Of a stretch of 64,000 nt of DNA, positions 10,476 to 51,316 are shown in pieces; positions within the stretch are counted from its first letter, which is position 1; each line of letters opens with the position of its first letter. The stretch is from Xylona heveae TC161. Lineage: Eukaryota; Ascomycota; Xylonomycetes; Xylonales; Xylonaceae. The notes beneath the pieces were generated by a model that worked only from the letters and a program-made list of their open reading frames with translations, did no database searches and had not been told where the DNA came from. The position numbers and the translations under genes are program-made. The stretch is from NCBI RefSeq assembly GCF_001619985.1, contig NW_017264204.1, positions 623,983 to 687,982 on the forward strand. The letters are read 5' to 3'.

Positions 10476-11618
10476 ATGCATTTCTTCTCCTCATCTACAC
10501 TCGCTGCACTCTCTTCATTCTCAGCCCTCGCCGCAGCTTTGCCTCTGGCTTCTCAGAATGGATCGGCTCCGGCTGCGCTAGACCGACGATCAGCGTCCTA
10601 TTCTGTCGTTCAAGTGGATGGCGGAACAACATCCTCCACGCCTAGCACAAAGACGGAATTGCGCACCATCACTCACAGCGCGAGCGCCTCCAGCGTGACA
10701 GAGGTGGTGACCTTGACCGAGCAGGCCACTCCGCTGCCCCCAACCACGCAGACCGTTGTTTCAACTATACTATCTACGCAGTCCGGCGCACCTACCACCA
10801 TTCTAGTCACCACGACCATCACAGGATCATCCACTGCGACGCCTTCGTCTTCCTCGGCTGTCACTGGATCATCTTCCTTGCCTTCTGAATCTCCAGCTAT
10901 CATCTCCACGTTGGCACCTGTCCCGGACTTTACGCAAACCTCATCCCCTGCATGGCCCACCAGCTGGAACACCTCTTCGCCTGTAGCCACGCCATCTTGC
11001 AACGAAACGCTACCAACGGCCACACTCGCACAACGGGCTGCGCTTGATACTGCGCCAACAGATCTTCCGAAACTCCCTTCAGTCACTCCAAAGGCCGGAT
11101 CTTTCAACGCTACTAGAGTGCCCGGAGCAGTCGGTGTCCGAGACCTCCCATCTGGAGCCAACCCTGCCGCTGCATTCCCTACTGGATTCTACAGACGTCA
11201 GGTTGCCGCGCCCACTGGCGTCGCTGACTCCTGGAATCAGACCGAGGATGGAGTCCACGTGCGGACCTTGGCTTCAGAAACTGCTCCTGCAGCTCCGTCT
11301 GGCTTCGTGACCCGTCGCGCTGTTGCAGCTGCCACTGGTACCGCGCCAGTATGGAACTCCACTGTTGAGGAGCGCGCTGTCCCATTCGAAGCTCCTGTCG
11401 CTGCCTCAGCCTCCGGTCATGCCCCTGAACGTCGAGCAGTCATTCAGTCTACTGGTGTTTCGTCCGCTTGGAATGCGACTTCTGCTTCTCTAGAGGGAAG
11501 AGCACTCCCGTCTGAGCGTGCTGCTGCTCCGTTTGCCACTGGTTTCCTCTCACGCCGCATCGTCGCTGCACCCACTGGAGCCGTTGGCGCCTGGAACGCC
11601 AGCTCTACCTCGGCCTAA
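10476..11618 (+). CDS. Secreted Ser/Thr-rich protein with RR-bounded tandem repeats (candidate Kex2-processed repeat precursor)
   Basis: Single exon, 380 residues from the ATG at 10476. That Met was chosen because it is followed at once by a signal peptide (MHFFSSSTLAALSSF, hydrophobic core to about residue 22); the frame extends 44 codons further upstream without such a feature. Next comes a dibasic LDRR, then a long Ser/Thr/Pro region likely to be O-glycosylated. The C-terminal third is repetitive. Arg-Arg pairs at 11193, 11313, 11430 and 11553 (steps of 40, 39 and 41 codons) each begin a unit of the form RR-xVAAxTGxxxxWNxT, followed by Arg-Ala-Leu-Pro-like and AATGF-like parts. A degenerate unit precedes the first (FNATRV to FPTGFYRR). 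Each unit carries an N-glycosylation sequon in its Trp-Asn motif. Regularly spaced Kex2-type sites in a secreted protein suggest release of peptides in the Golgi. This is inference; a structural wall protein is the alternative. Confidence 0.75.
   Translation: MHFFSSSTLAALSSFSALAAALPLASQNGSAPAALDRRSASYSVVQVDGGTTSSTPSTKTELRTITHSASASSVTEVVTLTEQATPLPPTTQTVVSTILSTQSGAPTTILVTTTITGSSTATPSSSSAVTGSSSLPSESPAIISTLAPVPDFTQTSSPAWPTSWNTSSPVATPSCNETLPTATLAQRAALDTAPTDLPKLPSVTPKAGSFNATRVPGAVGVRDLPSGANPAAAFPTGFYRRQVAAPTGVADSWNQTEDGVHVRTLASETAPAAPSGFVTRRAVAAATGTAPVWNSTVEERAVPFEAPVAASASGHAPERRAVIQSTGVSSAWNATSASLEGRALPSERAAAPFATGFLSRRIVAAPTGAVGAWNASSTSA
11193..11618 (+). repeat. Four in-frame ~120 bp protein repeats, each starting at an Arg-Arg pair
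   Basis: Units begin at 11193, 11313, 11430 and 11553; the last is cut short by the stop codon. Conserved positions are RR at the start, Val-Ala-Ala, Thr-Gly, then Trp-Asn-x-Thr/Ser, and a closing Thr/Ser-Gly-Phe before the next RR. Codon choice differs between units (cgt cgc, cgt cga, cgc cgc), so selection has kept the amino acids while the DNA has drifted. That argues for an old, functional repeat. Confidence 0.8.
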
Positions 11619-12719: not shown

Positions 12720-14169
12720 ATGCCAGGAGAGCTTGTGCTGGTACGTGAATTTTTTTTTACCCTGTTCAAATTTGGATCTTGTTTGATAAGTCGTTTTTCT
12801 TTCTGCTTTGCCACTGGTGTATTTGATGGTGGCATTTTATATTCCCTGAAACGCGTATTTTGGAGTAGAATGTTGGGCCATACATGGTGATTGAGCACTG
12901 TGGGGTACATTTTACTGTACTTGTTGATCCATGCTTTTGAAACATTTGGTGGATTAATCTGCCGCTACATCTTCTTTGCAAACATTGCAATAGAGAAATT
13001 GGAATATGTATATTCACACTTTTTGCAAACGAGAAGAATCTGACATATACAGGTTACTGGCGCGTCTAGCTCTGTCGGCGGAGCCATCTTGCGTGCAATC
13101 CTAGAAGCCGGCTATCGTGTGCGCGGCACCGGCAGGCGCATCGATCAGCTCGAGGAGCTTCGAAGTGTTCCTAGCCTTCAAATGCATGAGCAAAACCTCG
13201 AATTGGTTCAAGTCCCTGACATGGCTGCTCCTGACGCCTTCAAAGATCTGCTCCAAGGTGTTACATATGTAGTGCATACAGCCTCGCCAATGCCAACCAC
13301 AGGAGTTCCTTCCAATGGAGAGACTTATGATAGTCTTTACGTGCAGCCAGCGGTCAAAGGTGCATTGTCTCTGCTCGAGACGGCCAGAAGGTATCCAAGT
13401 GTGAAGAGGATTATTATCACCTCATCCATGTCAATTTATTTGTCAGAGGGAGGCGAGAATGATGCAGAGAAAGAGAAAATGCTACGTGGTAAGCGGCTGG
13501 AACAATTTTCCATGTATAAGAACTTGTGAAGCGGAATGCTAAATAATTTCAATGCGTATATTTACAGATGACGACATTCAACCTGTTTCAACAAGCCCAA
13601 TCAATGATCCATTGTGGGCGTATCGTGCTTCGAAACTTGCTGCGTATCACGCCGCAGTCGACTTCGTCAAGAGCGAGAAACCACAGTACGAGATTGTACA
13701 CATTATCCCGAGCTTTGTTGTAGGGAGAAATGAAAAAGTACATGTTTCATCCGCGTCCTCATCTGCTGCGTCGGATGTCATGTCTGGTAGCAATGGTATC
13801 ATCCTTTGCCCGTTGTTCGGCATCAAAAGTCCACAGGGTGTACATGGAGCCACTGTGCACGTGGATGATGTCGCAAAAGCCCATACAGAGGCTTTAACAA
13901 AGGCAGATGCTGGCGGTCAGAATTATATCCTGAATTCGCCGGATTGGAACGCAGGCGCCACATACGATGACGCGTTGGACATTGTCAAGAGACGGTTTCC
14001 AGACGAAGTGGCCTCCGGGGTGATACCCATGGGTGGAACGCTCCCGACAATCCCAGTAAAGATTGATTCTAGCAAAGCGGAGAGAGCTTTTGGGAAATTT
14101 AAAGGCTTTGAGGAACAGGTCGTTGATGCGGTAGGACAATATGTGGAGATGAGAAAGGCTGGAAAATAA
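12720..14169 (+). CDS. NAD(P)-dependent extended short-chain reductase (Gre2/dihydroflavonol-reductase-like)
   Basis: Exons 12720-12740, 13053-13488 and 13568-14169 give 352 residues. The first exon encodes only MPGELVL; the second opens with the cofactor motif VTGASSSVGGAI. The next blocks are GVTYVVHTASPMP, KRIIITSSMS and YRASKLAAYHAA (catalytic Tyr-x-x-x-Lys), followed by IIPSFVVGR. These fit the extended SDR fold of fungal aldehyde/ketone reductases; the substrate cannot be read from sequence. The cofactor loop has Ser13 where the family usually has the middle Gly (TGxxGxxG). Intron 1 is 312 bp, against about 50-100 bp for most introns here, and its minus strand carries coding-like sequence. 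Intron 2 is 79 bp (GTAAGC...TTACAG). It converges on the four-TM gene 250 bp away. Confidence 0.85.
12741..13052. other. Over-long first intron of the reductase gene, possible inserted fragment
   Basis: The intron runs from GTACGT to ATACAG, 312 bp and AT-rich. On its minus strand one frame reads on past the intron into exon 1 without a stop (start about 12910). Another frame contains stretches such as NPPNVSKAWINKY directly before it. The content looks protein-like (Trp, Pro and Tyr in a DNA-binding-like arrangement) but I cannot name a family. A degraded transposon fragment is possible. Confidence 0.35.
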
Positions 14170-15713: not shown

Positions 15714-17310
15714 ATGTCCACAAGGCCGAAAAAGTCGTGGGCTACTATCAATATCGACGTGCTTTGCGATTTGGCAAGTAATTTGCGTCAAGGGCTGCCT
15801 TGCACTTGTGAGATGCCGCGGAATCCGTCAGGTGGGAGCTTCAACTGGGTGATCTTCTTGCGTTTTGAAGACGGTGTTGAATGGGTGTTGCGATCTCCAC
15901 ATGGCATCTTTCAAGAGCCGGATATGGACTCGAAACTCATCGAAAGCGAAGTTGCAACTTTGCGGCATGTGAGAAGAAAGACGACCATTCCAGTGCCAGA
16001 AGTCTTCCGTTGCAGGTACGTCGCGCCTCATTTTGAATCTACATGCTTTCTGACCCTTTAAAAGCTCTTCCAAGAAAAATCCCCTTGGGATTCCCTACAT
16101 TTTAATGAGCAAGGCTAGCGGTTCCTCTCCGGAGAATTGGGATGAGCTACCGGAAAAGATCAAAAGAAAGATTCTGTTCCAACTAGGAGGAGTAACCCAG
16201 CAACTATCGCAGCTTCGTTTTGATAAGATTGGATCTTTGATTGAGACTCTGAGAGGTCTCGAGGTCGGCGAGTGTTTAGATTATGGCTTGGTACATTGTG
16301 AAAGTGACGGTGCCGAAATCGACCGGGGGCCTTTTCAGTCCGAGGAAGAATAATATCGTGCTTTGATCTCAGAGTTCCAGTCCCGGGCCAAATACGGAGT
16401 GGTCCAGGACTGCTTTATCGCACCTATGCCGATGCCAGCAGAATACCAAAACAATACTGACTTTACGGAAGTAAGAGGACTTTGGAGTGCATTCATCCAT
16501 GTGGGACTCAAAGGTGACAACTCGTACAACAGGACCGATTTAGTCGTGGCCGGCGACCTGATGCTGGAATGTATCGGGGAGTTGACTAAATGTTCGCCTC
16601 GCGTGACAGATGGCCAAGGTCGATTTCCTATATACCACCCTGATCTGTCGGCCAATAATTTCTTTGTTGATGATCAGTACAACATCACCTGCGTTCTCGA
16701 CTGGTCGTTTGCTTCCACGGCGCCGATGTCTGTGCTTGTCAATGCTCTTGAAGTGCCAGCATCTCGATCTATCATAGATGAGTCACTGATCACCTCCTTT
16801 GCTGAAGGTCTTGGCCACGGGTCAGACGAAACGTCCATTCCCGTCTATCCAACGAGGGGCATTTGGCTGCTCATGCGGCTCCTGAAATGGTGGCTTCTCT
16901 ACTCTGGCAACAGTTGTGCCGAGATTTGGGCGCAGGTCAGACCAACGCCTGAAGATTTTCAAACTGCCTTGTCATCAAAACAAGCCTTAAAGGAATACCA
17001 AACCCTCCGCAACGAGCTGGCTCTCGACGATCCGACAGCTGAGGAAATCTACCCTTACGAGAGCTACTATTACAAGCCGAGCCATCCTGCAGCAATGGAT
17101 AACAAGGTGATTCTGACGATAGTGAGGCATTTGGAAATGGTCTCGGAGTGGAATTCTCGATATAGCAGTACACCTGCACGCTACAGTCTCCGCAAGAACA
17201 GTCCACTGTTCAAGGCAGATGCAAAGCTGTGGAAATGGATACTCGGATGCATTGCGGACAAAATAGAGCCGGCAAGAAAAGCTGCAATGGTTTCATCACG
17301 GAGGGAGTAG
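15714..17310 (+). pseudogene. APH-family kinase-like gene with an in-frame stop
   Basis: Two exons, 15714-16015 and 16065-17310, with a 49 bp intron (GTACGT...AAAAG), give a family-typical aminoglycoside-phosphotransferase-like protein. Visible blocks are GGSFNWVIFLRFEDG (ATP-loop region), IPVPEVF, GIPYILMSKASG, the catalytic loop HPDLSANNFFVDD and the metal-binding VLDWSF. Fungi carry many such genes; their substrates are mostly unknown. The frame is continuous except for one TAA at 16351-16353, between QSEEE and YRALISEF. At that place family members usually have a Tyr-Tyr pair, so a TAT/TAC to TAA change explains it. There are no frameshifts. Without the stop the protein would be 515 residues. 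Either the gene died recently, or the base is an assembly error or read-through site; the intact motifs after the stop favour a recent or false loss. Confidence 0.7.
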
Positions 17311-41523: not shown

Positions 41524-42959
41524 GGTAACTACTGATGGCCAGCGTAACGCCCCAAAGAGCCGATTAAGTCAATGTTCGTAATGACGTCAGGCGGATCATG
41601 CAAAGAAAAGCAACAGCATCTGAAGACGAGCCTCCTAATTGCTGGCTGTACAACAGTATCCCTTGTGAAGTCTTGAAAATAGGACGGCGCAGACAATGTT
41701 GAGTGATTAATTGTACCCATGAGATTGATTGGCGGTATTAGTGACCGAGACGGCAGGGCTGAGGCTTGTGTCTCGCTTGGCGATCACAGCCACAAACAGC
41801 AAATTGGGAGGGAGGATCAAGGATGTCAGTCGGTTCTAGCAGGGCACCTTCTTGAACAAGGGAATGACAGAATAAGAGCATCGGCTGCCATGGGAGAACC
41901 GTGTGTAAAGTTCTGTACTTCTAATTCTGCAGTGCTTACGATGCTGGAATACAATCGTGTACAGCTAGGTAGTCAAAACGTGTCTCTGGTCTCTCTAATT
42001 GGCGGTTCCGTGGAGCTCAGGAGCTACCTACTTGCGGCGAGCAACAGTTGCTTTCATTACCTAAGGTACCCTAACTTATGCCGCGACCGAATTGCGCCGC
42101 TGGGCCGCAATCCATGTTGTCCAGAGTTACTGACCCTCGCTAGGTGTCGCAGGTCCAATTAGCCTTATCAGCCTGTCAGGCTACAATTAAGGAGAGCGCC
42201 TTTGGGTCCCTTGGTTCTTGGCGCTTTCATCCCCCTATTTTGTCCTCGCAATTCGTTGATCAGAGTTACGGATAGACCCTGAAATGCATACCGCTGTCTC
42301 TACCAAGGCAAAGCGGATAGACAGCGATGCCTCAGACCAGGGCCACCAACCTCCTGTGTCAAAAAAAAAAAAAAGATGTTTATTCAATATGAATAATTTT
42401 CAAAACTACGGTCCGTATTTACCACGATATCGCGTGTTGTGTGGCAGAACAGCTTTCAGTAAGTGGGGTCTGCTTTTGATTGGTAACACCCACTGAAGAT
42501 GACAGCTACGGACGGGGTGTACACCAGTGATATCCATGCCAATCACTTGCGTCTGCTGGTTGGCCCCGCTCCCCTGCCTGCTAATTGAGATGATTTCGGG
42601 AAATGTTTGGGGGCCGAAACCCCACAAGAATCAGCATATGATTTTCCTCGAGGGCCCTTTTCTCACTTGCTGGGCCTGTAAGCCGCATTACAGTCCATGT
42701 CACGAGTTGGTGTAGAGCCTCCCTGCTTCAGAATACTCTGCAACACCAAAATTGAGGTTATTCACCTATATTTCGCGAATTTATTCAGTTTGCGAAACTT
42801 CGTCGATTTCAGCACTCGTGTGCAAGAGGAATTCAACAAATTCTGTTCTCGGTCGAATACATGTTCTACATTTAATACATTTACGGGATCGCGTTTCGGC
42901 TGAGGGCCGGAGCGATTGAGCAAATTCACGCATCGTGAAGAAGGAAAACTAGCTTGACT
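41524..42959. other. Divergent spacer between the SR140-like and receptor-L-domain genes
   Basis: About 1.4 kb. An A15 run (42361-42375) is followed by AT-rich sequence. The 147-codon frame at 41719-42162 has no recognisable content. I see promoter sequence only. Confidence 0.45.
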
Positions 42960-44497
42960 ATGAGACTTCTCGAGAGAATAGGATGGGGAGTTGCGGTGCT
43001 GGTTCTGCTAACTTGTCGAGCTCAAGGTGCGTGATTCATCCTAGATTAGCCACGAGAAGTGATCAACTAATTGAGAACGGCTTTCCAGCGGACGACGCAC
43101 ACTGCGACGACAGCATTATTACTATTCAAAATCAACGCGATGCCACTGCCATAGAGAACTGCACTACTATTAGCGGCCAGTTGGTCCTCGACTCTAGCAT
43201 TTCCGGCTCCATTGTTCTTTCCGGCGTAGAGAGAATCAATGGCCCTTTAACCAGTCAGGGAACGAAGCAATTGGTCTCCTTTTCCGCCCATGACCTACGT
43301 ACTGTGGGCGGCGAGCTGCAATTCGCCAACGCCACCATCTTAACAACACTTAACTTCCAGAATCTGCGAAGCGTTGAAAAACTTACGCTGTCAAATCTGC
43401 CTTCCCTTCAAAAATTAGACTTGGCTGCGCCATTGCAAAGTGCTTCCTCTGTCGCCTTATCCAACACCAACCTGTCAACCGTGACAAAGGGCCTAGGCGT
43501 GAGGACGGTGGACGTTTTGAACGTGACAAACAACCCAAATCTGGCAAACCTCTCCATGCCTTTATTCAACGTCACAGAAAGCATGCTCATCGCGGGGAAC
43601 AACAATAATATGATGAACCTTTCTCTGCCTAATCTTGAATGGGCCTTCGCAATGAACGTCACAAATTGCAGTGTCGTCAACATGCCCTCCCTCTCCACGG
43701 TGAACGAAACATTGTCTTGGGTTCACAACCCAATACCTCTGCTGTCATTCCCCAACCTGACTGCCGTCGCTGGAGTACTGGATATAGAAGGCAGCTATTG
43801 GCTGAATAGTTTATCCATGCCAAAGCTTACCATTATCGAGGAAGATTTTATAATAAAGGATAACCCAAACTTGCACAATATTTCTGGGCTCCAGTCCCTG
43901 AATTCAACTTCCTCGATTAATTTCGAGGGGAACTTTTCCTCGTAAGTGATACATTCAATCCAAGATATTTCCTACGGGTAGTCTTATGTATTGATTTCGC
44001 TGACGCGAATCTGTCTATCTAGCGTTGAGCTGCCTTCCCTTGCGACCGTGTATGAGTACTTAATTATTGAGTCAACATCGTCCGATCTGAACTGTACGTT
44101 CTTTCAACGGTTCAAAGATCAATCATTGACGAACTGGACTTGCACTGGCGATGTGAGCAACTCGACCATCGGTATGGGATCAGGAGATTCATCAGATTCT
44201 GGTTCACATTCCAGTGGACTCTCGTCTGGCGCCAAAGCTGGTATTGCGGTGGGAGTCGTTGTATTTGTCGCAATTCTGGCAGTCGGGATATTTTTCTTTG
44301 TCCGTCGCAAAACACGTTATTCGCCCGTCGCCCACGAGAAGGGCGACGACAAGGAGCATACTGAGGTACACGGTGGTCATCGAAGCTATGAACAATCCGT
44401 AGCTTTAGAACTTGATGGTCAAGACAAAGCTGACCAGAAACCGAAAAAACCCGTCGAGCTCACTGGATCAACTATGGCTCACGAGCTGGAAGCATGA
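42960..44497 (+). CDS. Cell-surface receptor-L-domain protein with a membrane helix (Ecm33/Sps2-like fold)
   Basis: Exons 42960-43026, 43089-43941 and 44023-44497 (introns 62 and 81 bp) give 464 residues. A signal peptide opens it (MRLLERIGWGVAVLVLLTC). The ectodomain is a long series of short leucine-rich turns typical of receptor-L repeats, for example SGSIVLSGVERINGPL, LTTLNFQNLRSVEKL, VLNVTNNPNLANLSMP and DNPNLHNISGLQSL, with many N-glycosylation sites. Fungal Ecm33/Sps2 wall proteins share this fold but end in a GPI signal. Here a Ser/Gly linker leads to a transmembrane helix (AKAGIAVGVVVFVAILAVGI, then FFFVRRKTRY) and a charged cytosolic tail of about 65 residues. It is thus a type I membrane protein and may sense the wall or a ligand. 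A second Cys pair near the membrane (DLNCTFF, NWTCTGD) closes the domain. Confidence 0.85.
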
Positions 44498-50121: not shown

Positions 50122-51316
50122 TTAATGAGTCACACCAAGTTGCTTCTCGAGCTCGAGCAGATTCTTGACCGTGTCGACGATAGTGTCCTTGAGGCTGCGG
50201 AAATGGATATCCAAGTCGCGCTCCGCCTTGGAGTGGTCGACCTTGAACATGTCCGGCAGAGGGGCGTTCGGGGTGCCCTCTGGCACACGGTTGCGCAGCT
50301 CGGGGAAGTTCTCGCGAATAATGTCGCAGACCTGCTGGTAGGTAAAGGTCGAGGAGGCGAGGAAGTAGCGCTGGTTGCCGGCAACCTCGGACTCGTAAGC
50401 GCGGAGATGGGCGAGGGCGACGTCACGCACGTCAACAAAAGCAGGGAAGGAAGTGTCTGGGACGCTCTTTTCTGAGCCGTTGATGAGGCGGTAGATGTCG
50501 GCCGACGAGGTGTTGAGCTTCTTGATGTCCGTGACGGTGTGCAGGTTTGGTCCGTAGATCATGGGGGGACACAGGGTGGTGACGCAGAGCTTGGGCTGGG
50601 CGGCCTCGACAAACTCGTAGGCGGCGCGCTCAGCGAACGTCTTGCTCGCGCAATATGCGACCGCGCCGTTCTCGGTGCTGCGCGCCTCGTCCTTTTCCAC
50701 AGGGTTCCAGTCGTCTTCGGTGTAGGTGTGATCGGGGCGGAGTCCCTTGGGGATATCAATCATGGCAGCAAAAGAGGAAGTCAGGACGAGTCGCTTCACG
50801 CGGGTGTTCTTCTCATGGAGCGATTTCAAAATGTTGGTTGTGCCCTTGACGGCGGGGGCCAAGAGATCCTGGTTGTTGTCCTTGACCTCCATGACGAATG
50901 GCGAAGCAGTGTGTACGACCTATTTACAACAAGTGTTAGTTGTGTGATTTGAAAGGGGGAGAATATTCAGAAAAAGGAAGAGTACACAGGAAATGGGGGG
51001 AGACACATACTCCATCGACATTCTTGACGGCCTCATCAAAGGCACCCTGCGCGGTAATGTCGGGGACAATGGCAAACGAAAGCTGCTCGCCATACTGGGA
51101 GTGGCTCTTCTTGACAGCTTCGGCGGATTCCTCGGACCGCACGGTGCCACGGACCTTGTATCCGGCTTCGAGGAAGACGTGGAGGACGTGAGCAGCAACG
51201 AAGCCAGAGGCACCGGTAATCAGGATAGTCTTATCCTTGCCCTTTCCCGTAGCAGCGTTGACGAGAGATTTGGCAACGACCTTGATGGATCCTCTTCGAC
51301 CTTCAGTGGCAGACAT
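50122..51316 (-). CDS. NAD(P)-dependent extended short-chain reductase (Gre2-like)
   Basis: Exons 51316-51011 and 50919-50122 (intron 91 bp, GTATGT...AAATAG) give 367 residues. The cofactor motif ILITGASGFVAAH is at about residues 31-43. Then comes VVHTASPFVMEVKDNNQD across the splice and RLVLTSSFAAM; YCASKTFAERAAYEF is the catalytic Tyr-Lys pair. CVTTLCPPMIYGP follows, then AFVDVRDVALAHLRAYE. This is the same superfamily as the reductase at 12720-14169 and looks like fungal aldehyde/ketone reductases of the Gre2 type; the substrate is unknown. About 20 extra N-terminal residues precede the Rossmann strand (MSATEGRRGSIKVV...). The last Gly of TGxxGxxG is Ala. Confidence 0.88.

What the first reader, a model, noticed from the sequence alone, without database searches (positions are those of the whole stretch)
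10476..11618. Candidate Kex2-processed repeat precursor with Trp-Asn-x-Thr units
A signal peptide, a dibasic site after the N-terminal part, and four Arg-Arg pairs spaced 39-41 codons apart are seen directly. Each starts a unit with Val-Ala-Ala-x-Thr-Gly and Trp-Asn-x-Thr/Ser. Codons differ while the amino acids stay alike, which suggests constraint. Secreted proteins with repeats between dibasic sites are known in fungi as Kex2-processed repeat proteins, and some (for example the precursors of dikaritin-type peptides) yield small bioactive peptides. I recognise no described family with this Thr-Gly...Trp-Asn core.
Basis: partly seen in the sequence, partly recalled or inferred. Interest (0 to 1): 0.75.

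Follow-up and report, generated by a model that had tools for sequence, protein, structure and literature searches.

The report
Fungal secreted repeat peptide precursor
A fungal gene encodes a secreted protein that looks built to be cut by the processing enzyme Kex2 into several similar small, probably sugar-bearing peptides; such precursors are common in fungi, and this one looks like an old, diverged example with an unfamiliar core sequence.

Summary
An uninterrupted 380-residue ORF (10476-11618, +) carries a signal-like N-terminus, Arg-Arg at residues 37-38, a Ser/Thr-rich stretch, then four C-terminal units (40, 39, 41, 19 aa), each directly after Arg-Arg. The units are far more alike than shuffles; synonymous sites look saturated while V, T, G, W, N and both Arg stay fixed. 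One detail is wrong: unit 3 reads VIQSTG, not VAAxTG.

(1) Each spacer begins after a conserved single Arg with V or L at P4 (VGVR, VHVR, VEER, LEGR; four Arg codons), resembling the extended Kex2 motif. Cutting there too gives alternating WN cores (22/19/22/19 aa) and spacers (19/18/20/19 aa), the last core ending at the stop codon. (2) WNxT/S is an N-glycosylation sequon; 8 of 9 Asn lie in sequons.

Best reading: a diverged Kex2-processed repeat protein releasing linear, probably glycosylated peptides. A dikaritin is disfavoured: no Tyr in the cores, no DUF3328 hit in six frames of bases 1-23801. Cleavage is not shown, and no fungal collection was available to test orthologues.

The parts
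10476..11618 (+). uninterrupted ORF of the precursor, 380 aa plus stop
10476..10535 (+). probable signal peptide (aa 1-20; cleavage site inferred)
   Evidence: hydropathy profile; SignalP not run
10536..10589 (+). probable pro-segment ending in LDRR (aa 21-38); Asp at P3, called unfavourable in PMC8528282
10590..10955 (+). Ser/Thr-rich (45%) mucin-like stretch, aa 39-160
10965..10976 (+). isolated fifth WNTS sequon (aa 164-167), not next to RR; not recognised by the unit profile
11094..11195 (+). degenerate unit 0 (aa 207-240): FNAT in place of WNxT, no RR before it
   Evidence: 17.1 bits to the unit HMM in the segment 141-241 (14.2 in the whole protein); best of 1000 shuffles of that segment 8.3
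11142..11198 (+). spacer 1 (aa 223-241), after VGVR222, ends RR
11199..11264 (+). core 1 (aa 242-263), QVAAPTGVADSWNQT to VHVR
11265..11318 (+). spacer 2 (aa 264-281), ends RR
11319..11375 (+). core 2 (aa 282-300), AVAAATGTAPVWNSTVEER
11376..11435 (+). spacer 3 (aa 301-320), ends RR
11436..11501 (+). core 3 (aa 321-342), AVIQSTGVSSAWNAT to LEGR
11502..11558 (+). spacer 4 (aa 343-361), ends RR
11559..11615 (+). core 4 (aa 362-380), IVAAPTGAVGAWNASSTSA, ends at the stop codon

Best explanation
A secreted, diverged Kex2-processed repeat protein of a fungus. After signal-peptide removal the chain is N-glycosylated, and probably O-glycosylated in its Ser/Thr-rich part; the Golgi protease Kex2 cuts after the Arg-Arg pairs, which alone would give peptides of 40, 39, 41 and 19 aa, and probably less efficiently after the conserved [V/L]xxR sites. 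With both cuts and Kex1-type trimming of C-terminal Arg, the products are linear cores of 21, 18, 21 and 19 aa with the motif V-x3-T-G-x4-W-N-x-T/S, alternating with spacers of 16-18 aa, and the Ser/Thr-rich segment is freed. The most likely role is at the hyphal surface or in the extracellular matrix (as for Rep1 among KEPs), rather than as mating pheromone or cyclised toxin. Shown by sequence: ORF, sites, repeats, constraint. Inferred: every cleavage, glycosylation, trimming and the role. The confidence given is for processing at RR; I put cutting at the single-Arg sites too at about 0.35.
For: Four units in register with RR; summed pairwise score 315 against 128 +/- 11, 0 of 2000 shuffles. 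Units 42-46% identical to unit 1. Over 17 codons (RR plus 15) pS is 0.71, about that of resampled synonymous codons (0.74 +/- 0.06), with pN 0.33: the copies look old and not homogenised, yet V, T, G, W, N and both Arg are invariant, the 8 Arg using four codons. The single Arg at 222, 263, 300 and 342 has four different codons and V/V/V/L at P4; PMC8528282 gives Arg at P1, tolerant P2 and Leu or another aliphatic at P4. [LVI]xxR in residues 186-380: 6 (two of them RR sites) against 2.1, 160 of 20000 shuffles. The last unit stops where a core would end. 8 of 9 Asn in sequons. No Pfam family at E up to 0.01; no long hydrophobic stretch after the leader and no hydrophobic C-terminal tail.
Against: No cleavage, expression or mass-spectrometry evidence. 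No orthologue could be sought in fungi. The dibasic pairs are RR in 5 of 5, none the preferred KR. The dibasic count in residues 186-380 is reached by 748 of 20000 shuffles. Constraint could preserve a glycosylated wall segment rather than peptides. The copies are more diverged than the 'identical or nearly identical' motifs by which KEPs are described. Strict LxxR is met by 1 of 4 single-Arg sites; P2 there is V, V, E, G, of which only E is among the alternatives listed in PMC8528282. Spacer similarity without its RR is weaker (141 against 101 +/- 10, 2 of 3000 shuffles reach it). The single-Arg pattern was tested after it was seen. Alignment by amino acid biases pN downwards.
Confidence: 0.6

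Rival explanations
1. An intact, secreted mucin-like wall or matrix glycoprotein. The C-terminal units are disordered glycosylated repeats and the RR pairs are incidental or inaccessible.
For: Ala/Ser/Thr/Pro make up 50-62% of each of the five segments examined; 8 of 9 Asn in sequons; old, diverged repeats; dibasic count only moderately above chance in residues 186-380 (748 of 20000).
Against: Both Arg are retained in 4 of 4 units with four codons in use while the two residues before them vary (FY, VT, PE, LS). No GPI-like hydrophobic C-terminus.
Confidence: 0.25
2. A protein with a Kex2-removed N-terminal pro-domain only (cut at LDRR38), the rest acting as one mature protein.
For: RR at 37-38 after a short segment, as in the pro-domain class of PMC8528282.
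Against: Asp at P3 is called unfavourable there; the four in-register C-terminal RR pairs are left unexplained.
Confidence: 0.1
3. A dikaritin-type cyclic RiPP precursor.
For: Signal-like leader and repeats between dibasic sites.
Against: No Tyr in any of the 4 cores; no DUF3328 hit in six frames of 1-23801; 6 recalled-motif hits in the whole window, each with a stop codon within the 35 residues printed. Limits: Umemura counted neighbours within 15 genes, more than was scanned fully here, and a gene broken up by introns could be missed.
Confidence: 0.03
4. An alpha-type mating pheromone precursor.
For: Layout of pro-region, repeats, and a last copy ending at the stop.
Against: No two-Cys or PYGxPxG core as described for Dothideomycetes (PMC6339444); the residues after the four array RR are QV, AV, AV, IV, not the XA/XP Ste13 signature; copies diverged.
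Confidence: 0.02

Closest known systems
Kex2-processed repeat proteins (KEPs): Le Marquer 2019 (PMC6339444), Umemura 2020 (PMC7329392)
   Same: Signal-like leader, at least three similar fragments between RR sites, repeats clustered at one end and over 15% of the protein
   Different: Repeats only 42-46% identical to unit 1; best ungapped 40-mer self-identity 0.40 where Umemura used a 0.6 score; a sequon in every core; a second conserved single-Arg site at each spacer. Whether other KEPs share the last two was not examined.
Rep1 (repellent) of Ustilago maydis
   Same: Kex2 repeat precursor giving peptides of similar length (37 aa, PMC6339444) if only RR is cut; no Ste13 signature
   Different: No sequence comparison was made; Rep1 peptides form amyloid-like fibrils on hyphae (PMC8528282), unknown here
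Alpha-factor type pheromone precursors
   Same: Pro-region, tandem copies, last copy ends at the stop
   Different: No Ste13 signature and no pheromone core
Dikaritin precursors (ustiloxin, phomopsin)
   Same: Signal-like leader and repeats between dibasic sites
   Different: No Tyr in the cores, no DUF3328 hit in the part scanned, copies not near-identical

Membership tests
KEP | N-terminal signal peptide, no membrane domain | tested here: inconclusive
   Hydrophobic leader and no later long hydrophobic stretch; SignalP/TMHMM not available
KEP (Le Marquer pipeline) | At least 4 fragments after cutting at KR/RR | tested here: met
   5 RR pairs
KEP (Le Marquer pipeline) | At least 3 fragments matching one motif by FIMO (default settings; p < 1e-4 is the default as I recall it) | tested here: inconclusive
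   FIMO-like re-implementation with recalled background frequencies: u2 to u1 1e-8; u1 to u3 8e-9; u2 to u3 1.3e-4 (RR kept) or 8.5e-5 (RR removed). The Ser/Thr-rich middle also matches u1 at 6.7e-5 or 4.1e-5, so low complexity can pass such a cut-off
KEP (Le Marquer pipeline) | Repeats cover at least 15% of the protein | tested here: met
   3 x 39 of 380 = 31% (lengths)
KEP (Umemura pipeline) | At least 3 tandem repeats above the 0.6 identity score between dibasic sites | tested here: inconclusive
   Own stand-in only: best ungapped 40-mer self-identity 0.40, so probably missed; the published algorithm was not reproduced
KEP | Peptides actually released by Kex2 | not testable with these tools
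   needs secretome mass spectrometry
Dikaritin RiPP | DUF3328/UstYa gene near the precursor | tested here: not met
   no hit at E up to 0.1 in six frames of 1-23801; beyond that only 10 selected ORFs and a recalled motif
Dikaritin RiPP | Tyr-containing core (recalled for known members) | tested here: not met
   2 Tyr in the protein, none in a core
Alpha pheromone precursor | Ste13 signature XA/XP after the Kex2 site | tested here: not met
   QV, AV, AV, IV follow the four array RR
Alpha pheromone precursor | Two-Cys or PYGxPxG core | tested here: not met
   one Cys in the protein, outside the units; no PYG in the sequence
K2PP pro-domain protein | Kex2 motif after a disordered N-terminal pro-domain | tested here: inconclusive
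   LDRR at 35-38, with Asp at P3; disorder not computed

The most novel reading that the evidence does not exclude
A KEP read by two grades of Kex2 site: strong RR and weaker [V/L]xxR alternate, so that one precursor yields two peptide kinds in equal number (N-glycosylated WNxT/S cores and spacers without a sequon), possibly in forms set by Kex2 activity. The repeats have been held by selection long enough for synonymous sites to saturate, a class that identity-based KEP surveys would tend to miss.
Probability: 0.3. Interest if true: 0.55.

Novelty: new member of a known kind. Interest (0 to 1): 0.35.

Why it matters
KEPs are widespread (7878 in 1345 of 1461 strains, PMC7329392 abstract) and their functions largely unknown (PMC9769878 abstract). 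If this one is processed as proposed, it suggests that old, diverged KEPs exist below the identity cut-offs of surveys and that KEP products can be N-glycosylated, which would let them escape peptide searches that assume unmodified masses (inference).

Tried and rejected
Relatives: whole protein against viral contigs (10 stretches matched a pattern, none confirmed) and prokaryote genomes (248, none); units 1-2 against viral contigs (60, none) and units 2-4 against prokaryote genomes (389, none). These collections are not of fungi, so this says nothing on novelty. PDB by sequence: one match at E 0.39, taken as chance. Pfam on the protein: none. Rfam on the window: none at gathering scores. Paralogue in the window: tblastn with the low-complexity filter and composition correction off gave weak matches (best three outside the gene E 2.9e-4, 5.1e-4, 0.002), which I take for shared composition; of 6 WNx[ST] sites printed outside the gene (sites with a stop nearby were not printed) none has TG four residues before it. 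Intron inside the ORF: no donor-like site of the patterns searched. Chance ORF: rejected. Dikaritin and pheromone: rejected on tested features. Structure prediction was not run; a single-sequence model of such a low-complexity chain would say little.

Literature: seven searches. Seen: PMC6339444 abstract, Results, pipeline section and passages; PMC7329392 abstract, sections 6 and 13, passages; PMC8528282 first of three parts; PMC9769878 abstract and passages; PMC8329847 two passages, not relevant; other papers as search listings only.

Full report
What is there. The ORF at 10476-11618 on the + strand encodes 380 residues without interruption. The start has the context CAACAATGC with no ATG before it in the 195-base leader examined, and no donor-like site of the patterns searched lies in the CDS. 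Codon use is above a synonymous-random null and inside the range of 7 reference ORFs of the window (the comparison had one reference out of frame and is superseded). Domains found in the window include RNase H2 Ydr279, DASH subunit Duo1, a family-2 glycosyltransferase, NAD-dependent epimerase, HMG-CoA synthase, Vps35 and Not1. I take the window for fungal on that gene set (Duo1 as a fungal protein is recalled); no genome is held for it, and species and class were not determined.

Anatomy. Residues 1-20 are a hydrophobic leader. RR lies at 37-38. Residues 39-160 are 45% Ser/Thr. The C-terminal array has four RR-led units, 242-281, 282-320, 321-361 and 362-380. V, T, G, W and N are invariant in 4 of 4 units, and RR stands in front of each. 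A profile of the four units also finds a degenerate copy at 207-240 (17.1 bits in the segment 141-241, 14.2 in the whole protein; best of 1000 shuffles of that segment 8.3), with FNAT in place of WNxT and no RR before it. The WNTS at 164-167 scores below zero in that profile, so its kinship to the units is not shown.

Is it more than chance? Dibasic pairs alone are moderately enriched in residues 21-380 (63 of 20000 shuffles) and weakly in 186-380 (748 of 20000), but TGx4WN and WNx[ST] never reach the observed count in 20000 shuffles. The units' summed alignment score is 315 against 128 +/- 11 (0 of 2000). Both halves repeat: cores 256 against 106 +/- 10 (0 of 3000); spacers 159 against 101 +/- 10 (0 of 3000), but 141 (2 of 3000) when RR is left out, so the spacer similarity is weaker.

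Constraint. Over RR plus 15 core residues pS averages 0.71 and pN 0.33; resampling synonymous codons from the gene itself gives pS 0.74 +/- 0.06, so synonymous sites look saturated. Codon-position identities are 0.63, 0.69 and 0.36. The Arg codons of the four array pairs are AGA CGT, CGT CGC, CGT CGA, CGC CGC. Because units were aligned by amino acid, pN is biased downwards; the saturation of pS does not depend on that.

A second site. Each spacer starts after a single Arg: VGVR222, VHVR263, VEER300, LEGR342, with codons CGA, CGG, CGC, AGA. PMC8528282 (first part read) gives the Kex2 preference as Arg at P1, a tolerant P2, Leu or another aliphatic at P4, and an expanded motif LxxR. Four of four sites have an aliphatic P4, though strict LxxR is met by one, and P2 (V, V, E, G) is on the listed alternatives only for E. 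[LVI]xxR occurs 6 times in residues 186-380 against 2.1 expected (160 of 20000 shuffles); two of the six are RR sites, and the test was chosen after seeing the pattern. Cutting at both kinds of site gives spacers of 19, 18, 20, 19 aa and cores of 22, 19, 22, 19 aa, the last ending at the stop codon. That coincidence is the best argument that the core, not the 40-residue unit, is the product; it remains an inference.

Glycosylation. WNx[T/S] is the N-glycosylation sequon (established knowledge). 8 of 9 Asn are in sequons, and 5 of 6 Trp directly precede such an Asn. So selection on WN may be selection on a glycosylation site with an aromatic residue before it, and not on a new peptide pharmacophore.

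Comparison. KEPs are defined by a signal peptide and repeats between dibasic sites. This protein meets the fragment and coverage rules of Le Marquer, is at the edge of its motif rule in my re-implementation (u2 to u3 1.3e-4 or 8.5e-5; the Ser/Thr-rich middle also reached 6.7e-5 or 4.1e-5 with u1), and by my stand-in measure falls below the identity used by Umemura. It lacks dikaritin features (no core Tyr; no DUF3328 hit in bases 1-23801) and alpha-pheromone features. Umemura reports DUF3328 neighbours for 22% of KEPs, so their absence is the common case and does not speak against a KEP. In Coprinopsis, KEP-derived linear peptides were detected by mass spectrometry while kep knockouts showed no phenotype (PMC9769878).

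Verdict. Most likely a diverged KEP releasing linear glycopeptides (0.6), with an intact mucin-like glycoprotein as main rival (0.25). It is an ordinary kind of thing with two less ordinary traits, and can be tested directly in laboratory yeast.

Noticed in passing
10676-11188, - strand: A 171-codon stop-free frame lies antisense within the precursor gene; probably a shadow of the coding strand.
   Followed up: no
42953-43942, + strand: ORF with a Receptor L domain match (PF01030, E 9.3e-8); perhaps an Ecm33-like wall protein (recalled, not tested).
   Followed up: no
13044-14166, + strand and 50125-50919, - strand: Two NAD-dependent epimerase/dehydratase-type genes in one window, the first about 1.4 kb downstream of the precursor gene.
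   Followed up: no
16354-17307, + strand: ORF without a Pfam family at E 0.01; a phosphotransferase (APH) match there stays below its cut-off (15.5 against 23.2 bits).
   Followed up: no
10965-11036, + strand (aa 164-187): WNTS, then CNET, then LAQR (P4 Leu) has the order sequon then LxxR of the later units, but the unit profile does not recognise it.
   Followed up: partly
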